The notes beneath the pieces were generated by a model. It saw nothing but the letters and a program-made list of their open reading frames with translations, was not told the origin of the DNA and searched no databases. Source: a virus. Taken from it: a DNA stretch of 22,884 nt. The position numbers and the translations under genes were made by a program. Below are positions 6,330-16,021 of this stretch, in pieces (position 1 is the first letter of the stretch; each line of letters starts with the position of its first letter). Location: positions 1-22,884 of IMG/VR virus record IMGVR_UViG_3300012036_000028; one strand, 5' to 3'.

Positions 6330-7225
6330 ATTGAGAACTCCCCGACTAAGTAATTTAAGATAGACAATTGTCCGCCCATAGCGTTCGGCTTGAAATTAAG
6401 CCAAGTATCGGTAGAAATTGCCGCTTGCTCAAAAGCTACATTTATAGTCTTTTTTCCAAAATTAGGATCATTAATATCTGTAATAGTCGAAGAGTTATCG
6501 ACAAAATTCTTAAAAGCACTATTAAAGCGATCCATAAAATCTCGCCCTAATAGTAAAACCGTTTGAGGATTTAAAGAATATTCGGCGCTCGCGTCTTCGT
6601 CGCTTGCCGCTTCAAGTAAAAAGGATAAGACGGGCAATTGGACGCCGTCTACAATATTCCCTCTTCGTCTTTTCCCCTCAAGGATTTGATCGATCGGATT
6701 AATAGTATAAATTTTTTCGGTTGTTTTAAGTGTAGGGAGAGGCTCATTTTCAAAATTATACCACGTCCGAATAGTATCTCTTCGCGTAGCAAAACCAAAT
6801 TGATCTCTTTCGTAATTTATATTTACTTTTAAAACTAAGTCCGTTAGTTCCGGATTTCTAAACCATTTAACTTCCCTTAATTCCCCTTGGAAAAAAGATC
6901 TTTTAGGGTATAGGCTTTCTTTTAATTCGCTTTTGTAATCAATATCTTGATAAGGCTTATTACGAAGCTCGTCGCTTACCATATCAAGGATCTTAGGGCC
7001 GAATTTACCTTGGGCGATATGACTTAAAATGTATTGCTCGACGTCTTGCGCCTCTTGATTTGTTAAATTTCTTTTAAAATAAAGACTAAAATTTTCCCCA
7101 TTTCGCATAATAGTGGAATAGAAAGAAGAAAAAACCGCGTTTAATTCATAATTTAACTTAGTTTGGTTAAGCTCTTGAGCCGCAATATCTTCATTAATAT
7201 TATAATCTATTTTAAATACGGACAT
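6326..7225 (-). CDS. Probable phage structural protein of unknown family, 299 aa
   Basis: I place the start at ATG 7225, which shares one base with the stop of the gene upstream (TAATG). A longer frame to 7270 would run through the upstream gene and is unlikely. The protein begins MSVFKIDYNINEDIAAQELN and has mixed helical and strand character. There is no signal peptide, membrane span or catalytic motif I recognise. The middle (about residues 110-170) contains a strand-rich part with ERDQFGFATRRDTIRTWYNF. The C-terminal part ends in GGQLSILNYLVGEFSI. Its place between a fibre gene and the papain-like gene, inside one tightly coupled run, suggests a virion appendage or its assembly factor. 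This is inference from position only. Confidence 0.6.
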   Translation of the reverse strand: MSVFKIDYNINEDIAAQELNQTKLNYELNAVFSSFYSTIMRNGENFSLYFKRNLTNQEAQDVEQYILSHIAQGKFGPKILDMVSDELRNKPYQDIDYKSELKESLYPKRSFFQGELREVKWFRNPELTDLVLKVNINYERDQFGFATRRDTIRTWYNFENEPLPTLKTTEKIYTINPIDQILEGKRRRGNIVDGVQLPVLSFLLEAASDEDASAEYSLNPQTVLLLGRDFMDRFNSAFKNFVDNSSTITDINDPNFGKKTINVAFEQAAISTDTWLNFKPNAMGGQLSILNYLVGEFSI

Positions 7226-7743
7226 TATGAGAATCTCCAAACTTCGATAAGTGACGAGTGCATAAAACAATCTACGTTATTACGAGAACTCCCGAACCTT
7301 ATCTCGATTGTGTTATTGCCCGCATTTAAGTTTTGAGTATAAAAAAGAAAGCTTCCCGGTATTCTTTGATCATTCCCTCGATCTTTTGGCTCTACTTGAA
7401 TAGTCCGGACAATATTCCCGTTTACTACAAGATTAATGATTCCGTCTTTTGATGTGCTATCTAGACTCCAAAAGAAATTTACATTAATTCGATAAGTATT
7501 TGCGCCACTTGGGGCGGTCACTGCAAAAGTTAAAGAGTCATAGGCTACCGGAGTTCCCCCATTTGTCTCTAAATTCTCTTTTTGCTTAAAAGCCTTATCT
7601 TTGCCAAAAACGGGGACGGGAGAATTTTCCCAATCCGTCCCATTATACCTTACATATTGATCGGAGCTTAGGGACGAAAAATCTACGTCCCTAAGCGTCT
7701 CTAAGCTATAATCTTGTACGAATTTAGATAAGATTTTACTCAT
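7225..7743 (-). CDS. Small fibre-like protein with shared KFVQD N-terminus
   Basis: 172 residues. The N-terminus MSKILSKFVQDYSLETLRD repeats the start of the next gene upstream (MSRLLGKFVQDSTITDL), so both probably use the same short peptide to attach to the same partner. A segment DQYVRYNGTDWENSPV, typical of linkers in phage fibres, follows at about residues 28-43. The rest (about 60-172) is beta-rich, with TYRINVNFFWSLDS and NNTIEIRFGSSRN strands as in a small jelly-roll or TNF-like receptor-binding head. I infer a short tail fibre or decoration. The ribosome binding site AAGGAGTT lies in a hairpin with the upstream stop codon. The stop of this gene overlaps the next start (TAATG). Confidence 0.72.
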   Translation of the reverse strand: MSKILSKFVQDYSLETLRDVDFSSLSSDQYVRYNGTDWENSPVPVFGKDKAFKQKENLETNGGTPVAYDSLTFAVTAPSGANTYRINVNFFWSLDSTSKDGIINLVVNGNIVRTIQVEPKDRGNDQRIPGSFLFYTQNLNAGNNTIEIRFGSSRNNVDCFMHSSLIEVWRFS

Positions 7744-7749
7744 ATTTTT

Positions 7750-7770
7750 AACTCCTTAATTTAAAGAGTT
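7750..7770 (-). promoter_or_regulatory. Hairpin masking the ribosome binding site of the 7225-7743 gene
   Basis: A nearly perfect 21-base palindrome. Outer arms AACTC/GAGTT and inner TTTAA pairing are complementary, and the one mismatch in DNA becomes a U-G pair in the leftward mRNA. The AAGGAGTT Shine-Dalgarno is the 3' arm. The 5' arm begins within the UAA stop of the gene before, so a ribosome reaching that stop would open it: a translational coupling device. This is seen as sequence symmetry; function is inferred. Confidence 0.5.
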
Positions 7771-8851
7771 AGTAATCCAAAGACTCAAAGTTAATATCTA
7801 AAACGTCGCCCGAAGCGATTATAGAATCAAGATCGCCCGCGAAAGTTATTCGAGTTTTTCCGCTCGCTCCGCCAGTATATGAAACTGTAAAGTCTACTAC
7901 TTCTTTTTGCTTAATCCCAAATCTAGGGAAAAGGAGAACGCTATCTCTTGAAGCTACTTTAGAAAGATCTACATACCCGTTAGAGATATCAGTCGCATTT
8001 AAAGTAAAGGCCTCTTCGAAAGTTCTACGCCCTTGGATCTCCCCAAGTCCGCCGATTTTAGTCGTCCCATCTACTAAATCCGAATCTACTAAAACGACTA
8101 GGCTATTTCCCGAATATCCAAGCCCGTCGCCATTATCAATTGATAGCGTTTGGCCTGTTTTTGTTAAACCTTGTCCAGCTTGGATTACTTCTCCAAATTG
8201 AGTAAAAGCAAGTCCGGAAGTCCCTACCGTGATAGGATCGGGAGTCGTTAAAAGAAATCCTAAAGATCCATTTACAGTCCCTTCCGCTACCGGGACGAAC
8301 ATCCCTTGGGTTACTTCGGCGTCTTCGTCCGCGTCTTCGGATCTTGTTAAAATCCAAGGATTTCCCGCATCCCCTAATTGAGTCACTTCATAAAGACCAT
8401 TTTGTAAAGCCGTCCCTTGATCCTTAACTAAAAGTCTCTCTCCGACTGATAATCCTACTCCGTCAATTGAAGGAAGCGCGCCATTTGCATCGGCCGTTAG
8501 AGTCGCCCCTACGCCCGAAACGCCATTATCATAAGTCGCCGCCGGAAGAGCCGCCGCAGTCGCTACTCTTGCCGCATCTTTTGGATCGGAAAGTCCCGAG
8601 ACTACCGAGTCGACATATTGCTTATTTGCACCGTCGAGCGCATTCGTCGGATCGGCAAGATTTGTTATCTTATTATTGCCCATTGACATTTCTCGAAGCA
8701 TTTCGAGAATATCGGAAGCGTTAATTTGTAAGATTGATACGTCCGCGGTATTTGCCGCATTTCTCGCTCTTAGTGGTAAATTGTTTCTCAATCTAATTTG
8801 AAGATCCGTGATCGTCGAATCTTGGACAAATTTCCCTAATAATCTTGACAT
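7769..8851 (-). CDS. Tail fibre protein with common phage fibre repeat domain
   Basis: 360 residues. The N-terminus MSRLLGKFVQDSTITDL is shared with the next gene downstream. Residues 60-85 (NNKITNLADPTNALDGANKQYVDS) are the classic phage tail-fibre shaft motif. Residues about 90-222 match a domain very widespread in tail fibres: DPKDAARVATAAALP, a GVGATLTADANG strand, GLSVGERLLVKDQ, LQNGLYEVTQLG, PWILTRSEDAD, then FVPVAEGT and a final FTQFG, ending in QAGQGLTKTGQTLSIDNG. The C-terminal 100 residues are beta-rich and probably form the tip. It would be a trimeric shaft and head on the virion for host contact, but which receptor cannot be read from the sequence. The leader carries an SD hairpin similar to the one downstream. 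Confidence 0.85.
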   Translation of the reverse strand: MSRLLGKFVQDSTITDLQIRLRNNLPLRARNAANTADVSILQINASDILEMLREMSMGNNKITNLADPTNALDGANKQYVDSVVSGLSDPKDAARVATAAALPAATYDNGVSGVGATLTADANGALPSIDGVGLSVGERLLVKDQGTALQNGLYEVTQLGDAGNPWILTRSEDADEDAEVTQGMFVPVAEGTVNGSLGFLLTTPDPITVGTSGLAFTQFGEVIQAGQGLTKTGQTLSIDNGDGLGYSGNSLVVLVDSDLVDGTTKIGGLGEIQGRRTFEEAFTLNATDISNGYVDLSKVASRDSVLLFPRFGIKQKEVVDFTVSYTGGASGKTRITFAGDLDSIIASGDVLDINFESLDY

Positions 8852-9953: not shown

Positions 9954-10676
9954 TTATTCCCTTATAATAATTTTATCGTAGCCCAAGAGCGTCAATCTAT
10001 GAAACTTTTCCGCTTTAGTATCTGAAAAGACCATAACGCATTTTCCGCTTACCATATTAAATTCGATTGAGCGCTTGTCCATTTGGGGCGCCTTACAATC
10101 ATTATTTTCAGCTAAAACGACGTCTTCTTTAAAAGTGATCCTTTGGATTAAGCCCGATCTCGCTTGGCAATGACTTGTCCCTTTTGAGTCTTTAGTCCTC
10201 CCATTGCATTCGATTGTCGCCGGAAGCTTATATCTATTCGATTGAAAATCGACAAATCCCCAAGAGTGACGGCCGGATTTATCAAATCCCCCAAATTCTA
10301 AAGGACAATCCCCTTCCGCTTCGATCGCATTGGGATAATAGGCAAAAGTTACTTGATTTTTAACGTCGATTCTTTTTGAGCCCCATCCAAAAAGCCCGCT
10401 TTTTACAGTCTTTTGGACGTTCCAAGCTTTCTCTTTTGTCTCTTCTTTATGGCATGACGTCATAACGAAAAGATCGAGATTTCCTTTGGACTCGACTAAA
10501 AATTCGTATTTATCCGCTTTTTCAGCTACTAAAGATCCTTCGACCGTTTCGCCGTTTACGGTTATTATCATATCTCGCTTGTAAATATCCTCCGCATTTA
10601 ATAGCTCCGGGGCGGGATCTCCCGAGCAAGAGGCCGGCATGGACAAAAAAACTAAAATAAAAAGATTTTTAATCAT
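9954..10676 (-). CDS. Exported cysteine-containing protein, possible lipoprotein, unknown function
   Basis: 240 residues starting with a Sec signal peptide (MIKNLFILVFLSMPASC). The cysteine at position 17 follows Pro-Ala-Ser, an imperfect lipobox, so the protein is either a lipoprotein or cut by signal peptidase I nearby. The mature part has several more cysteines (in TSCHKEE, GDCPLEFGG, IECNGR, SHCQARSG, NDCKAP, GKCVMVF), which suggests disulfides in the periplasm, and a mainly beta pattern. I do not recognise the family. In a lysis block it could be an outer-membrane spanin partner, though it is much longer than usual for one. It could also be a surface protein that blocks superinfection or alters the envelope. 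The start overlaps the metallopeptidase stop by ATGA. Confidence 0.7.
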   Translation of the reverse strand: MIKNLFILVFLSMPASCSGDPAPELLNAEDIYKRDMIITVNGETVEGSLVAEKADKYEFLVESKGNLDLFVMTSCHKEETKEKAWNVQKTVKSGLFGWGSKRIDVKNQVTFAYYPNAIEAEGDCPLEFGGFDKSGRHSWGFVDFQSNRYKLPATIECNGRTKDSKGTSHCQARSGLIQRITFKEDVVLAENNDCKAPQMDKRSIEFNMVSGKCVMVFSDTKAEKFHRLTLLGYDKIIIRE

Positions 10677-11269
10677 ATTTTAACCCATCGGCATTTCTTA
10701 ATCCAAAGCCTATACCATTTACGAGAGCATATTTGCGTATAAATTTCTTCTTTTGGGAGATCTATCTCGCCTTCGATAAGCTTAGGATATAAAGTTTTAA
10801 CGATATAATTTGCATAATACGCAAAAGAAGTATTTGGATCGGAAGTATAATGGCGAAATCCCATTGTATGAAGCCATTCATGTAAGAGATTTGAGACAAT
10901 CCTCTCAAGCCCATAGCTATAATAGAATCGATTATTAATATGGATTGTAGGCTTTCCGGGATTCATAAATCCCACGACCTTACTCCATGCTTTTCCGCGA
11001 TACTCATCTACGATGATATCGGCTTCGTAATCTATTTCCGTATTCCATTCTTCTTTCCCAGAAAGGATATGATTATAAAGCTCTAAACCGCTTTTATTTT
11101 TATATTTGGAAGATTCGCCGATTCGCCAATTATCGGGTATATTGACGATCATATCTTTGAACTCCGCCGAATTAACGATAGTCTCGAATAGTTCCGCGGA
11201 TTTTGTAATCTTATTTAAAATTGACGCGCTATAAACGCCCTTAGCGTTTATATTTGCTTTTAGTTTCAT
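10673..11269 (-). CDS. Zincin-type metallopeptidase (HExxHxxGxxH), phage-encoded
   Basis: 198 residues with a full extended zinc-binding motif NLLHEWLHTMGFRH: H130, E131 (general base), H134, G137 and H140. That is the metzincin form HExxHxxGxxH. The segment before it (GKPTIHINNRFYYSYGLERIVSN) fits the strand and helix that lead into the motif in zincins. I see no clear Met-turn after it, so membership in a named metzincin family is open. There is no signal peptide. The C-terminus is basic and aromatic (RKWYRLWIKKCRWVKI). It lies between a holin-like gene and an exported protein, both overlapping it by ATGA, so it is made during lysis. The substrate is unknown: host envelope protein, peptidoglycan-linked protein or a phage protein are all possible. 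Confidence 0.85.
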   Translation of the reverse strand: MKLKANINAKGVYSASILNKITKSAELFETIVNSAEFKDMIVNIPDNWRIGESSKYKNKSGLELYNHILSGKEEWNTEIDYEADIIVDEYRGKAWSKVVGFMNPGKPTIHINNRFYYSYGLERIVSNLLHEWLHTMGFRHYTSDPNTSFAYYANYIVKTLYPKLIEGEIDLPKEEIYTQICSRKWYRLWIKKCRWVKI

Positions 11270-11786: not shown

Positions 11787-11822
11787 GTTCTTTCTCCTTA
11801 GTTATTGGCGTTTAATGCCTTT

Positions 11823-12098
11823 TCAATTGTGGGGCCAATGGCCCTCTAAAGTATGTAATCTTTCTTTCGCTCTTGCACTCTCTTTTTTAAGATAGGCAAT
11901 GTCCATTTTTAAGACGTCGAGCTCTTTTTTATGCCAAGATTGATCTAAAATAATCTCGGCGATTTTAATATTAAGATTATCCACGCTCTCTCTCATCCCG
12001 TGGATATCGCCTCTCATCCGCTTAAACTCCATAAGTAAAAGAGTCCCAATGACGGAGAGGAAGCCTCCTAAAAGTATCAATAATATTTCGACTTCCAT
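11823..12098 (-). CDS. Membrane-anchored coiled-coil protein (spanin or XhlA-like candidate)
   Basis: I choose ATG 12098 (MEVEILLILLGG), because AGGAG of TATAGGAGAATTAA lies at a workable distance before it. An upstream ATG at 12122 overlaps that ribosome binding site. The protein is 91 residues: an N-terminal membrane span (about 3-23, VEILLILLGGFLSVIGTLLL), then a long charged helix with heptad-like spacing (about 26-85) and a C-terminal HTLEGHWPHN. One span followed by a coiled coil facing away from the membrane is the design of inner spanins and of XhlA-type proteins that work with holins. It sits at the border between the fibre genes and the lysis genes. Either role is possible. Confidence 0.68.
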   Translation of the reverse strand: MEVEILLILLGGFLSVIGTLLLMEFKRMRGDIHGMRESVDNLNIKIAEIILDQSWHKKELDVLKMDIAYLKKESARAKERLHTLEGHWPHN

Positions 12099-12112
12099 GT
12101 CGGTTAATTCTC

Positions 12113-12754
12113 CTATAAGCATTTGTCTATTTCAGCAACAAGAGCTGTTTTGTCCCCTTCCGTAACCAAAGCCCCGTCCGGAGAAATTGCATTAATTTCT
12201 TCTTTTGCAGTATTAAGAGATCCCGACTCTAAAAGCGCGTCGACTTCGGAGTAAGTATTAACCATAGTTTTAATTTGGGCCGTAGTTAATCCTTTTGAAG
12301 CATTTCTAACCATTAAAAGAGCTTTGACATTTTTACCGCATTCCATCGCCGCTTTTGCTTGGGCAATCGCTCCGGTCATTTGAGCCTTTGCCGCTTGCTC
12401 CGCTTCATAAGTCGCTTTAAGACTTGCGTCTTCCATTACTTGCTCCGGACGAATCCAAGTACAATAAACCTCGTTTGGCTCAAGAGTATAGATTGCTTCA
12501 CCCTTTTCGCATTCTTTTAAAGCGAGTTCAGCTTGGCAATCCGCTTCGTCTACGCAAGACTCCGTCTCTTCTTTCATTTGAGTTTCGGCGACTATTCTAT
12601 GGTAAGCACAATTATATCCGCTAGGGATTTTAATCGTATTAGGCTTTGACTTCATAAAAACCGTTTGGCCGTCTTCGCATACTCCGACTTTTGACTTATC
12701 TAAGTAATTGGCGAATGCATTAAATGTTATTAAAAAAAGTATTAAATATTTCAT
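12113..12754 (-). CDS. Exported cysteine-rich protein downstream of the large fibre gene
   Basis: Start ATG 12754 is chosen because GGGAGAA stands nine to ten bases before it and because MKYLILFLITFNAFA is a good Sec signal peptide. A longer frame to 12904 would run back into the fibre gene. The 213-residue protein has eight cysteines (in VGVC, GYNC, ESC, ADC, KEC, VYC, MEC, DKC), pointing to disulfides outside the cytoplasm. A compact N-terminal domain (to about residue 105) is followed by a helical part rich in Ala, Gln and Lys, and then by LTTAQIKTMVNTYSEVDALLESG, a helix pattern I recall from small proteins at the ends of phage tail operons. It starts one base after the fibre stop, so it may assist or accompany that fibre. 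Function not recognised. Confidence 0.7.
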   Translation of the reverse strand: MKYLILFLITFNAFANYLDKSKVGVCEDGQTVFMKSKPNTIKIPSGYNCAYHRIVAETQMKEETESCVDEADCQAELALKECEKGEAIYTLEPNEVYCTWIRPEQVMEDASLKATYEAEQAAKAQMTGAIAQAKAAMECGKNVKALLMVRNASKGLTTAQIKTMVNTYSEVDALLESGSLNTAKEEINAISPDGALVTEGDKTALVAEIDKCL

Positions 12755-12755
12755 A

Positions 12756-14690
12756 TTATTTTTCTCCCATACAAATAACGGTTGAGACAAGGTCTCGACG
12801 TGTTGAGCCACTTGTCGTCCTAAATGACCATTGATTGCTATCAAAAACCCCCAATCTACTACAAAAAGTATTTCCCGAAGCAATACAAACGCAAATGGGA
12901 ACATCAGAGAAAGTCCCTGATTTAAAATTTAAAACATGTTCCCCAATCCTGATATCTGTAATGCTGTCAACCCAAGACTCGCAAAGGTCATTATCTGCTA
13001 TTGGCGTTCCCGTCCCGGCGTTTATAATACAAGCTTCAACTCTAACGTTCTTGCTAGCACTTTCAGCATAACTATTTGTTACCTGTCCGACTATGATAGG
13101 TTGGACTGTTGGCATCTTAAGATCTTCTTTTTTGACATTAACAATAACGGTATATCCCTGCCCAGGAGGCCCATTTGGTACTGTTGGGTAATGCCTTCTT
13201 ATAACAAGATTGTTATTAGCTAAACCGATAACAGTATTTGCCCCACCTAGAAAATTAAATAAACTAGATACCTGTGGTGGTGAGTTAGAAAATGTAACTG
13301 CAACATCAGGAATTTTAGAAAATCTATCAGGATTAAGACCGAAAGTATCAGTACTTGTTTGAGCTATCCAATCGGTGTCAGGAGTTTTTGATATAATATT
13401 TCCAGAAGAATTAACTTCAAAGCTGAATGTATTAACATTCTCACTAACTTTAGGAATAGACTTGTAAACTTGAACGCTTTGTTTTGCGTCTGTTCCTTGT
13501 TTTTGTGCAGAAATAAAAAATCCATTGTTAACTCTTAAAAAGCCGCCAGCGTTAGTCTGCTCGACTGTTATAACTACTTGACTTGCCGATATAGAATCGT
13601 CAACCTCACACCCATTCAATGTAACTGGCGACGCCGATCTTGAGGTGCAATTAACATTTGGCGGTACACTGAAAACTCCACTAACAAAGTTGCAAGTATA
13701 GACTCCAGTCCCAGTTATTGAGCAAGAGTCTATGAAATTTGAGCTTTCCTTTGAGACTAAGCCAGCATCATCAATATATGCACTAAATACATCAGGCAAA
13801 ACACTTTCACTTAATCCAATTAATGTTCCTGCATATGACTTATCAAATTTAATTAATGGGCTTGCACTTGCCCCAGTGTTTATTAATCTAAGTCTAATAT
13901 TGAAATCATTAACAAGTCCCATTTTTGGACATATAAAAAATGCTGATTCAACCGCTGAAATGGTATGAGCATTTAAAACTTGAGAACCCAATATATCATT
14001 ATCTGCATCTATTACTTGTAGAGTAAGATTTTCATCCCCTCCAATGTATTCAATTTGTATTTGGCATGATCTTCCTTTGAAAATATCTTTATCAAAGTCA
14101 AGAACTGCCGAATCCAGAGTGTCGTTTTGTGCCGAAGGCGTCCATATAAAAGACTGTTCGCCTTCCAATGGATCGGAAGTAGTTATGGCAAAAGTTCCGC
14201 CCGAGTTAGTCCATCCGGTCGTCCCGTCTTCGGCGTTCGCATTATCGTCCGTAGTAAAAGCATTGTTAAAATTCTCTCCGCCGCCTCCGCCGCTTCCCGT
14301 CCCAAATTTTTTAAAATTTGCTCCGACTTTACTTTTAAAAACTAGCTCTCCGACCGCGTCGTCATATTTAATCTCCGGGATATCCGCCGTCCCATTAATA
14401 TCATATTTTAGGGAAAGATCTTGAGCCGTTCCGTCTCCAATTGATATTTCGTTTCCCTCAATCGCAAGAGTCGATTTAGCGCGAAATGGGATATTAATTT
14501 CCATTTCCGTTCCGTCCGGAGAAGAAAAGATAGGATTTGAAGCCCCAAGTCCCATTTTTAACTCGAGAGACTTAGCGCTTAAAGCGTCTCCGTCTCCAAA
14601 TTTCATATCATTATTAGGAATATCAAATGGGATCGCTCCAAAAGCTCCCGTCGAAATCGCCAATAATACAAATATTATTAAACTTTTCAT
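12756..14690 (-). CDS. Large fibre / receptor-binding protein with signal peptide and mosaic C-terminus
   Basis: 644 residues. The start MKSLIIFVLLAISTGAFGA is a clear Sec-type signal peptide, unusual for a virion protein. Residues 25-130 are beta repeats typical of fibre shafts (SLELKMGLGASNP, STLAIEGNEISIGDG, IPEIKYDDAVGELVFKS). A glycine linker (about 132-138) leads to a jelly-roll-like domain (about 141-300, DDNANAEDGTTGWTNSGG onward) as found in carbohydrate-binding and phage proteins. The remaining part is beta-rich with many cysteines (SCSITGTGVYTC, NCTSRS, GCEVDD, ACIINAG, PICVCIASGNTFC). From about base 14160 down to 12760 the DNA style changes, with few GATC sites and looser codon use, which marks the distal part as recently exchanged. 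It is probably the host-recognition protein; alternatively it is an exported adhesin made by a lysogen. Confidence 0.78.
   Translation of the reverse strand: MKSLIIFVLLAISTGAFGAIPFDIPNNDMKFGDGDALSAKSLELKMGLGASNPIFSSPDGTEMEINIPFRAKSTLAIEGNEISIGDGTAQDLSLKYDINGTADIPEIKYDDAVGELVFKSKVGANFKKFGTGSGGGGGENFNNAFTTDDNANAEDGTTGWTNSGGTFAITTSDPLEGEQSFIWTPSAQNDTLDSAVLDFDKDIFKGRSCQIQIEYIGGDENLTLQVIDADNDILGSQVLNAHTISAVESAFFICPKMGLVNDFNIRLRLINTGASASPLIKFDKSYAGTLIGLSESVLPDVFSAYIDDAGLVSKESSNFIDSCSITGTGVYTCNFVSGVFSVPPNVNCTSRSASPVTLNGCEVDDSISASQVVITVEQTNAGGFLRVNNGFFISAQKQGTDAKQSVQVYKSIPKVSENVNTFSFEVNSSGNIISKTPDTDWIAQTSTDTFGLNPDRFSKIPDVAVTFSNSPPQVSSLFNFLGGANTVIGLANNNLVIRRHYPTVPNGPPGQGYTVIVNVKKEDLKMPTVQPIIVGQVTNSYAESASKNVRVEACIINAGTGTPIADNDLCESWVDSITDIRIGEHVLNFKSGTFSDVPICVCIASGNTFCSRLGVFDSNQWSFRTTSGSTRRDLVSTVICMGEK
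12760..14160 (-). other. Compositionally distinct segment: likely exchanged receptor-binding region
   Basis: Counting by hand, GATC occurs three times in 12781-14160 (starting near 13121, 13637 and 14067), about 2 per kb. Sampled stretches elsewhere carry 6 to 15 per kb (nine in 1261-1860, nine in 17881-18480, six in 8101-8700, four in about 11459-12100). CCGG-, CGGA- and TCCG-like words also thin out, while ordinary TTG, TCA and ACA-type words rise. The reading frame stays intact across both edges. The edges are approximate. Confidence 0.6.
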
Positions 14691-14692
14691 AA

Positions 14693-15307
14693 TTAAACTA
14701 CCTCCGTCATATTTCCGATTAATTGATTATTTGCTCCATTATTCTCGATTTCATCCGTATTATTGTCAAATGTATTAAACATTACAAAACAATTTTTTGC
14801 GTTCGCCGTAAGCTCTATGGCTTTCCCTCCCGCTTCGTCGAAATTAAGAAATCTTCCTTTCTCTATTTTTACTCTCGGAGCATCTATTTGAAGCCCTACG
14901 ACCGTAGTCGCGCCTTTGGCAAAAGAAGCGCTCGGATGAAAAGTAACCTCTACGCCCGCTTTGTCTATTAGTTGCGTAACCGTCGGAGAGATTGGATCGA
15001 GAACGTAAATTCTAACGTCTTCTAAAGGGAGATCTGTCCCATTCATATCGGCCATAACGTCGTTAATTGTAGCGTGTGTCCCGGTTGGGCTCACAATGGC
15101 GTCGTAAAGCCCTTGGATTTGAGTAACCTTGTCGACTTCTCCGTCGAAATATTCTACCCATTGTCCTACGTTATTTTGCCACCAATTAAAAAATTCTACC
15201 GGCGGGATTTCTACTTTCCATCCCTCCGCACGTTTCGCCGCTCCGGGATCTTGTATTAATGATCCTCCGTCCGTTGCCCACGAAGGAAGTTGACTAGGTT
15301 TTGACAT
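14693..15307 (-). CDS. Tail fibre/appendage protein with FNWW N-terminus and beta-helix-like end
   Basis: 204 residues. The N-terminal 60 (LPSWATDGGSLIQDPGAAKR, then EGWKVEIPPVEFFNWWQNNV and GQWVEYFDG) are a well-known phage motif, a Gly-Trp ... Pro-Pro ... Asn-Trp adaptor that starts many tail fibres and attaches to the baseplate. Residues about 130-204 (LQIDAPRVKIEKGRFLNFDE and following, with NCFVMFNTFDNNTDEIENNG and NNQLIGN) have the short strand-turn rhythm of a right-handed parallel beta-helix. This suggests a short fibre or a capped spike. It follows the DUF2612-type wedge protein, the usual site for the first fibre. Ribosome binding site CTAAGGAGAAAGAAT is strong. The stop is two bases before the large fibre start, so the two could be partners. 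Confidence 0.8.
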   Translation of the reverse strand: MSKPSQLPSWATDGGSLIQDPGAAKRAEGWKVEIPPVEFFNWWQNNVGQWVEYFDGEVDKVTQIQGLYDAIVSPTGTHATINDVMADMNGTDLPLEDVRIYVLDPISPTVTQLIDKAGVEVTFHPSASFAKGATTVVGLQIDAPRVKIEKGRFLNFDEAGGKAIELTANAKNCFVMFNTFDNNTDEIENNGANNQLIGNMTEVV

Positions 15308-15334
15308 ATTCTTTCTCCTTAGCTAAATGCTATC

Positions 15335-16021
15335 TTATATTAAGTCCGTTGAAAATCTTCCGCCGTAAATATGATCCTCAATCGTCCCGAAGCCTAAAAT
15401 CCCTTCATTCGAAGGATCTTCAAAGCCGAATTTTGGAGAAGTATCATAAAAGAAAGCGAACTCTCCTCCGATACTCCCATCTACTACCGTCCCAAAGCCC
15501 AAGGCCGTAGGCGCTCCTGAAAAGCCAAAAGGCGTTCCACTAAATTCTCCGATCCGATCTATACGAATCCCCGCTCCGACTACGCCTTGAAGCTTATTAT
15601 AAATAAACTCCGCCGTAATTGGATTAATCGTCCCATTTGAGAGAAGAGTCATTCCCGCGGGATAATGCTCTTGTAATTGGGCTATGCTGGTCCTAGTAAT
15701 AATTTTATAAATATCGATAACTCTCTCCGTCTCCCCTTGGGAAATATTCTCCCCAAGTTTAACGTAGAGCAATATCTTATAAAAATCGTCGTCAAAGCCG
15801 AGTCGCTCTTGGCCTATAATCGTCCCAAAATCGTCTAAAACTTGTCCGGATGCATTTTCGATCCATCTCCCCTCAAATAGTGAAAAAAGAGCGTCCTCAA
15901 GATCTTGAGTCTCTCGGTTAAACGAATCGAGTATGGATATTAAGTTAGTCGCTTGCTTATATTGCTCGATTAACCGATCTTGCGCCTCTTGAATATGGTT
16001 AGTTATTTTAGAGACTGTCAT
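15335..16021 (-). CDS. DUF2612-type baseplate wedge protein
   Basis: I choose ATG 16021 (MTVSKITNHIQEAQDRLIEQ), which overlaps the stop of the baseplate J gene by ATGA. A frame to 16054 would begin inside that gene. 228 residues. The N-terminal part fits the DUF2612 group of phage proteins (QATNLISILDSFNRETQDLEDAL, LDDFGTIIGQERLGFDDDFYK, LLYVKLGENISQGETERVIDIY, AGMTLLSNG). The C-terminal third is Gly/Phe-rich (GTPFGFSGAPTALGFGTVVDG, PKFGFEDPSNEGILGFGTIED) and likely forms the fibre docking part. Proteins of this type follow the J protein in contractile tail clusters and act like P2 gpI in completing the baseplate edge. The position here is exactly that. Confidence 0.8.
   Translation of the reverse strand: MTVSKITNHIQEAQDRLIEQYKQATNLISILDSFNRETQDLEDALFSLFEGRWIENASGQVLDDFGTIIGQERLGFDDDFYKILLYVKLGENISQGETERVIDIYKIITRTSIAQLQEHYPAGMTLLSNGTINPITAEFIYNKLQGVVGAGIRIDRIGEFSGTPFGFSGAPTALGFGTVVDGSIGGEFAFFYDTSPKFGFEDPSNEGILGFGTIEDHIYGGRFSTDLI

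What the first reader, a model, noticed from the sequence alone, without database searches (positions are those of the whole stretch)
12760..14160. Distal two thirds of the large fibre gene look recently exchanged
GATC is found three times in 12781-14160 but 6 to 15 times per kb in four sampled regions elsewhere, and the general word style changes too. The frame is intact and the N-terminal shaft keeps the local style. This is what one expects if the receptor-binding part came from another phage or from a bacterial surface protein while the attachment part stayed.
Basis: partly seen in the sequence, partly recalled or inferred. Interest (0 to 1): 0.6.

Follow-up and report, generated by a model that had tools for sequence, protein, structure and literature searches.

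The report
Phage fibre with recently swapped tip
A virus of an unknown bacterium carries a cell-recognition fibre whose outer two thirds was recently replaced by a version from another virus; unusually, the fibre and its companion protein both carry export signals, so they may be assembled outside the cell's interior.

Summary
One segment, 12800-14130, departs from the rest of the phage: an independent Markov model gives LLR 150 (second-best segment 8; simulated maximum 12.5). GATC is a weak marker (3 seen, ~9 expected). The strong one is CAG/CTG: ~28/kb here, ~3/kb elsewhere.

Exchange is shown directly. L002, 98.8% identical over 8.4 kb, loses all identity at the fibre's Gly linker (nt ~14286, aa ~135). 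The window's shaft groups with its own backbone relatives. Its jelly-roll and tips instead match fibres L019, L036, L037 and L039; three of these sit on phages with a different adaptor and only marginal baseplate similarity. L019 is a natural recombinant: L008-type shaft, window-type middle, L008-type end. The donor was probably another phage; no bacterial surface protein was found, but host genomes could not be searched well.

The partner's N-half has the same three nearest relatives as the terminal tip domain. Tip exchange is a known kind of event; an apparently exported fibre/partner pair moving between unrelated phages is a new variant. Host and virion location are unknown.

The parts
12756..14690 (-). 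Fibre gene, 644 aa
   Evidence: Intact frame; relatives at the same place in the tail operon
14637..14690 (-). Predicted Sec-type signal peptide of the fibre, aa 1-18 (MKSLIIFVLLAISTGAFG)
   Evidence: Hydropathy scan; all 13 fibre relatives have one. No SignalP was available; the cleavage site is my reading
14298..14636 (-). Retained beta-rich shaft, aa 19-131
   Evidence: 99% identical in L002, 49% L003, 39% L006
14277..14297 (-). Gly-rich linker, aa 132-138: homology breakpoint
   Evidence: blastn identity with L002 ends at window 14286; linker present in the complete relatives
13797..14276 (-). CBM-like jelly-roll module, aa 139-298
   Evidence: Alignment A11; Foldseek to CBM6/CBM4, weak model
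12800..14130 (-). Segment of foreign DNA composition, about aa 187-630
   Evidence: Max-scoring segment, LLR 150; codon z -4.3
13479..13796 (-). Tip repeat A, aa 299-404
13113..13442 (-). Tip repeat B, aa 417-526
12759..13085 (-). Tip repeat C, aa 536-644, beta-sandwich
   Evidence: AF2 pLDDT 87.9; BFVD matches to phage proteins
12113..12754 (-). Partner gene, 213 aa: signal peptide, Cys-rich N-half, helical C-half; likely chaperone or cap of the fibre
   Evidence: function inferred
14693..15307 (-). Adaptor, tail-fibre N-terminal type, 204 aa
   Evidence: phrog_2282 tail fiber protein E 1e-6, aa 9-53

Best explanation
The gene encodes a mosaic receptor-recognition fibre: signal peptide, beta-rich shaft, Gly linker, CBM-like jelly-roll, then three tandem lectin-like tip domains. 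In a recent ancestor, recombination with another phage carrying the same fibre/partner cassette replaced the part distal to the linker, while the backbone-specific N-terminus stayed (shown by homology and composition). The donor had ordinary DNA composition, unlike the CAG/CTG-avoiding recipient (shown for the segment; the exact donor was not found). The likely effect is a change of surface glycan recognised (inferred). Recombination was probably by homology or near-homology at the conserved linker/jelly-roll start and the partner gene, perhaps helped by the phage's own PD-(D/E)XK nuclease and Enc34-type ssDNA-binding protein (inferred). Fibre and partner both carry signal peptides, so they are probably exported by Sec, folded with disulphides in the periplasm, and joined to tails at lysis or displayed at the surface (inferred; the choice is open).
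For: L002: 98.8% identity over 8405 bp ending at the linker, different CAG-rich tip beyond it. Foreign-composition segment 12800-14130. Different nearest relatives for shaft, jelly-roll, tip C and partner; AU test p 6e-40. L019 as a second recombinant. Three relatives of the swapped part lie on phages with marginal baseplate and no adaptor similarity. Tip fold matches predicted phage proteins, some named tail fibre. Signal peptides in 13/13 fibres and 10/10 partners; Cys enrichment p 2e-9.
Against: No donor of high identity was found (best jelly-roll 61%, tip C 46%). Compositional and homology borders differ by about 50 aa, so more than one exchange is needed. Lectin and CBM assignments are weak (PDB E 0.08 for tip C; low-confidence full model). 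A virion fibre with a Sec signal is unexpected. Host unknown.
Confidence: 0.85

Rival explanations
1. The protein is not a virion fibre but a phage-encoded, Sec-exported adhesin displayed on the infected host cell (a MAT-like fibre), for example to exclude rival phages or alter the host's own contacts; its tip is swapped for that reason.
For: Conserved signal peptides, Cys-rich, architecture like Bdellovibrio MAT fibres (PMC10769870).
Against: Sits directly after baseplate and adaptor genes in phages with different backbones; tip fold matches phage proteins, some named tail fibre.
Confidence: 0.25
2. The distal part came from a bacterial surface protein, not from another phage.
For: Signal peptide and Cys-rich, cell-surface-like architecture; two genome scans were pattern-limited and cannot exclude it.
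Against: All homologues of jelly-roll and tips found lie in phage contigs, next to the same partner gene.
Confidence: 0.07
3. Assembly chimera of two phages in one metagenome.
For: Metagenomic contig; L002's contig ends inside the variable tip.
Against: Needs two in-frame joints around a 1.33-kb insert; L019 shows the same kind of mosaic in another sample; both flanks keep backbone composition.
Confidence: 0.04
4. No exchange: the odd words reflect an unusual amino-acid make-up (Ser/Thr/Asn/Cys-rich tip) or local selection.
For: Tip proteins are indeed rich in Ser, Thr and Asn.
Against: Synonymous codon z = -4.3; CAG/CTG normal in the tip but depleted in all three frames elsewhere; direct homology break against L002.
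Confidence: 0.01
5. Programmed diversification (invertible segment or diversity-generating retroelement).
For: Variation is concentrated in the receptor-binding end.
Against: No inverted repeats in 11800-15400; no reverse transcriptase or recombinase among the window proteins scanned (a few genes were not scanned and most of the phage lies outside the window); differences are whole-module replacements, not point changes.
Confidence: 0.02

Closest known systems
Shared tail-fibre plus chaperone host-recognition modules of Alteromonas phages A5, V22, P24 (PMC10579305)
   Same: Fibre and downstream cognate protein are shared between phages with different backbones; differences concentrated in particular domains; repeated (duplicated) domain in the fibre.
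   Different: No signal peptide is mentioned there; sequences not compared here; our partner is Cys-rich and its chaperone role is only inferred.
MAT (mosaic adhesive trimer) fibres of Bdellovibrio bacteriovorus (PMC10769870)
   Same: Signal peptide, conserved beta-rich N-terminus, fibre, C-terminal tips exchanged in evolution; some tips with disulphides.
   Different: MATs are bacterial surface proteins; this gene lies in a phage tail operon. The MAT N-terminal domain could not be compared; no S74 domain here.
Classical tail-fibre tip exchange among tailed phages (P2/Mu/P1/T4-type, from memory; modularity reviewed in PMC9603124, listed but not read)
   Same: Conserved N-terminus, exchanged receptor-binding C-terminus.
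   Different: Those fibres are, to my knowledge, virion proteins without signal peptides; this fibre family has no significant match in PHROGs, Pfam, NCBIfam or among cultured phages.

Membership tests
Modular phage receptor-binding fibre with exchanged tip | Gene in the tail module, next to baseplate and adaptor | tested here: met
Modular phage receptor-binding fibre with exchanged tip | Conserved N-terminus, replaced C-terminus between near-identical phages | tested here: met
Modular phage receptor-binding fibre with exchanged tip | Tip with a carbohydrate-binding type fold | tested here: inconclusive
   BFVD matches to phage proteins; PDB lectin only E 0.08; CBM hint from a weak model
Modular phage receptor-binding fibre with exchanged tip | Present in the virion | not testable with these tools
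   Needs virion proteomics
MAT superfamily | Signal peptide followed by the conserved ~130-aa MAT N-terminal domain | tested here: inconclusive
   Signal peptide predicted; the MAT domain itself could not be compared
MAT superfamily | Encoded by a predatory bacterium and displayed on its surface | tested here: not met
   Gene lies in a phage tail operon; surface display not testable. Not filed as a member
Fibre + cognate chaperone module (Alteromonas A5/V22 kind) | Downstream cognate gene that co-varies with the fibre tip | tested here: met
   For the window, partner N-half and tip C share the top three relatives L039, L038, L040; over all pairs only Spearman 0.37
Fibre + cognate chaperone module (Alteromonas A5/V22 kind) | Partner needed for, or bound to, the fibre | not testable with these tools
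   Needs co-expression

The most novel reading that the evidence does not exclude
A class of tailed phages makes its receptor-recognition fibre and the fibre's Cys-rich partner as Sec-exported, disulphide-bonded proteins, and this two-gene cassette is traded between phages with unrelated adaptors. Tails would then be completed outside the cytoplasm, or the fibres are displayed on the infected cell, like the fibres of predatory bacteria.
Probability: 0.5. Interest if true: 0.8.

Novelty: new variant of a known kind. Interest (0 to 1): 0.55.

Why it matters
Exchange of receptor-binding tips is a main way phages change hosts, and here the recipient's strong avoidance of CAG/CTG makes the borders of a recent exchange visible without knowing the donor. 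The fibre family has no significant match in curated libraries or cultured phages. If the conserved signal peptides are real, they raise a direct, testable question: how does a tail fibre that leaves the cytoplasm get onto a virion that is built inside it?

Tried and rejected
No homologue of the fibre in INPHARED or of L037's fibre in PLSDB. No family match for the window fibre in Pfam or NCBIfam and only chance-level ones in PHROGs; for relatives only sub-threshold hits. Genome scans: the N-terminal alignment found nothing; the baseplate alignment found only distant relatives, so the host was not identified; the genome search does not draw relatives for a virus record. The full-length AF2 model is poor and was used only for the jelly-roll hint. 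A single-sequence search with aa 180-644 found nothing; an alignment with L019 then found five more loci. An exact DNA word from the shaft found only L002's contig; a degenerate tip C word found nothing. GATC was dropped as the main marker because CAG/CTG is far stronger. Literature searches gave no clear report of a tail fibre with a Sec signal, but the library is partial.

Full report
WHAT WAS CLAIMED.

CHECK OF THE OBSERVATION. The gene is 12756-14690 on the minus strand, 644 aa, intact. GATC occurs three times in 12781-14160; the window average is 6.7/kb, so about nine were expected: suggestive but weak, and the longest GATC gap (12220-13120) also spans part of the next gene. The style change itself is overwhelming. 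Tetranucleotide distance of 1.4-kb windows peaks at 0.59 over 12701-14100, against about 0.21-0.31 for windows that do not overlap the region. The leading words are CAG/CTG: 40 found where the rest of the phage predicts 4.3. A Markov model trained on two relatives of ordinary composition (L007, L009), not on the segment itself, picks 12800-14130 with LLR 150; the next segment scores 8, and 30 simulated background sequences never exceed 12.5. Amino-acid content does not explain it: synonymous codon choice in aa 188-631 has z = -4.3, the other genes lie within -1.9 to +2.1.

EXCHANGE SHOWN BY HOMOLOGY. Contig L002 is 98.8% identical to the window over 8405 bp, from upstream tail genes through the fibre shaft, and then loses all identity at the Gly linker (window ~14286, aa ~135). 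Its own tip is different and also CAG-rich (37/kb). Other relatives with the same tail genes (L003, L006, L007, L008) carry the same architecture: signal peptide, shaft, Gly linker, jelly-roll, variable tip.

MODULES HAVE DIFFERENT RELATIVES. The window's signal peptide + shaft is nearest to L002 (99%), L003 (49%), L006 (39%), in line with the baseplate protein (L003 65%, L006 64%). Its jelly-roll is nearest to L019 (61%), L037 (59%), L036 (53%), L039 (52%), far above L003 (27%) and L006 (33%); its terminal tip (aa 521-644) is nearest to L039 (46%). Holding window, L003 and L006 together on the jelly-roll tree is rejected (dlnL 156, AU p 6e-40), while the shaft tree keeps them with L002 (weakly, 64/68). 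L036, L037 and L039 share only marginal, partial baseplate similarity with the window and no adaptor similarity. L019 is a second recombinant: shaft about 80% like L008, middle like the window, last part like L008; L008 and L019 as a jelly-roll pair are rejected (p 1.5e-5). L008's tip is also CAG-richer than its genome.

BORDERS. Homology and composition borders differ: against L002 the break is at aa ~135, while foreign composition starts at aa ~187. Residues 138-187 keep local style yet are 76% identical to L019, itself a CAG-poor phage. The simplest reading is two successive exchanges, the older from a CAG-poor relative, the recent one from a phage of normal composition. The 3' compositional border is near the end of the gene. 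The next gene's protein is mosaic as well: its Cys-rich N-half has the same top three relatives as tip C (L039, L038, L040), while its C-half is nearest to L040 and L006. Over all pairs of loci the tip C / partner N-half correlation is modest (Spearman 0.37), so co-inheritance is supported for the window rather than proved for the family.

WHAT THE SWAPPED PART IS. Three ~100-aa tip repeats (aa 299-404, 417-526, 536-644) recur in L019 and L036-L040, separated by conserved linkers. Tip C is predicted with confidence as a beta-sandwich (pLDDT 87.9). It matches 15 predicted viral proteins at E < 1e-3, one of them named tail fibre protein and more so named further down the list; the best solved structure is a snail H-type lectin, but only at E 0.08. 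The jelly-roll resembles CBM6/CBM4 modules in a model of low overall confidence. Glycan binding is therefore an inference.

THE UNEXPECTED PART: EXPORT SIGNALS. All 13 fibres and all 10 downstream partner proteins begin with a positively charged residue followed by a strongly hydrophobic stretch and a small-residue cleavage-like motif (9-residue hydropathy 2.6-3.7; most other window genes lie near 1, the exceptions being a lipoprotein and two membrane-type small proteins). This was a simple scan, not SignalP. The partner has four invariant cysteines. Fibre plus partner contain 20 Cys in 824 residues, against 7 in 3393 for 13 tail-type proteins (p 2e-9). This fits export by Sec and folding with disulphides. 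A Sec signal on a tail fibre is not expected for a virion assembled in the cytoplasm, so either the fibre is added to tails outside the cytoplasm, or it acts on the cell surface, or the stretch is not cleaved. My searches found no clear report of this.

MECHANISM. Shown: module replacement downstream of the linker. Inferred: recombination at conserved stretches (linker/jelly-roll start and the partner gene) during co-infection. The phage encodes a PD-(D/E)XK nuclease and an Enc34-type ssDNA-binding protein, which could support it. There are no inverted repeats in the region and no reverse transcriptase among the proteins scanned, so programmed variation is unlikely.

COMPARISON WITH THE KNOWN. 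The nearest published case is the fibre + chaperone host-recognition module shared by distantly related Alteromonas phages (PMC10579305), where no signal peptide is mentioned. The architecture also resembles Bdellovibrio MAT fibres (PMC10769870), but family membership is not claimed: the MAT N-terminal domain could not be compared, S74 is absent, and the gene is in a phage tail operon.

VERDICT. The exchange is real and ordinary in kind; the apparently exported fibre/partner cassette, mobile between unrelated phages, is a new variant worth testing.

Noticed in passing
Window except 12800-14130; also L003, L006, L008, L019: CAG/CTG is avoided about tenfold in all three reading frames (obs/exp 0.08, 0.18, 0.02), beyond what dinucleotides predict, so it acts on DNA rather than codons; L007, L009, L036, L037, L039 do not show it. 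Cause unknown; the unharmed foreign segment with 39 such sites argues against simple ongoing restriction.
   Followed up: partly
L008:12601-13300: The fibre tip of L008 is also CAG-rich (28.6/kb) in a phage with mostly 0-7/kb elsewhere: a probable independent tip import.
   Followed up: partly
10673-11269 (-): Protein with an HExxHxxGxxH zinc-protease-type motif (HEWLHTMGFRH), kept in L006 as HEYMHKLGFGH; no Pfam or NCBIfam hit.
   Followed up: no
9954-10676 (-): Predicted lipoprotein (MIKNLFILVFLSMPASC), with a relative in L006 (15979-16689); no family match.
   Followed up: no
7225-7743 (-): Small protein with a sub-threshold CBM_35 match (E 9e-6), next to a tail-fibre-like gene at 7769-8851: a possible second glycan-binding part.
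   Followed up: no
12113-12754 (-): Listed ORF 12113-12904 overlaps the fibre gene; the likely true start is the ATG at 12754, right after the fibre stop, giving the signal peptide.
   Followed up: yes
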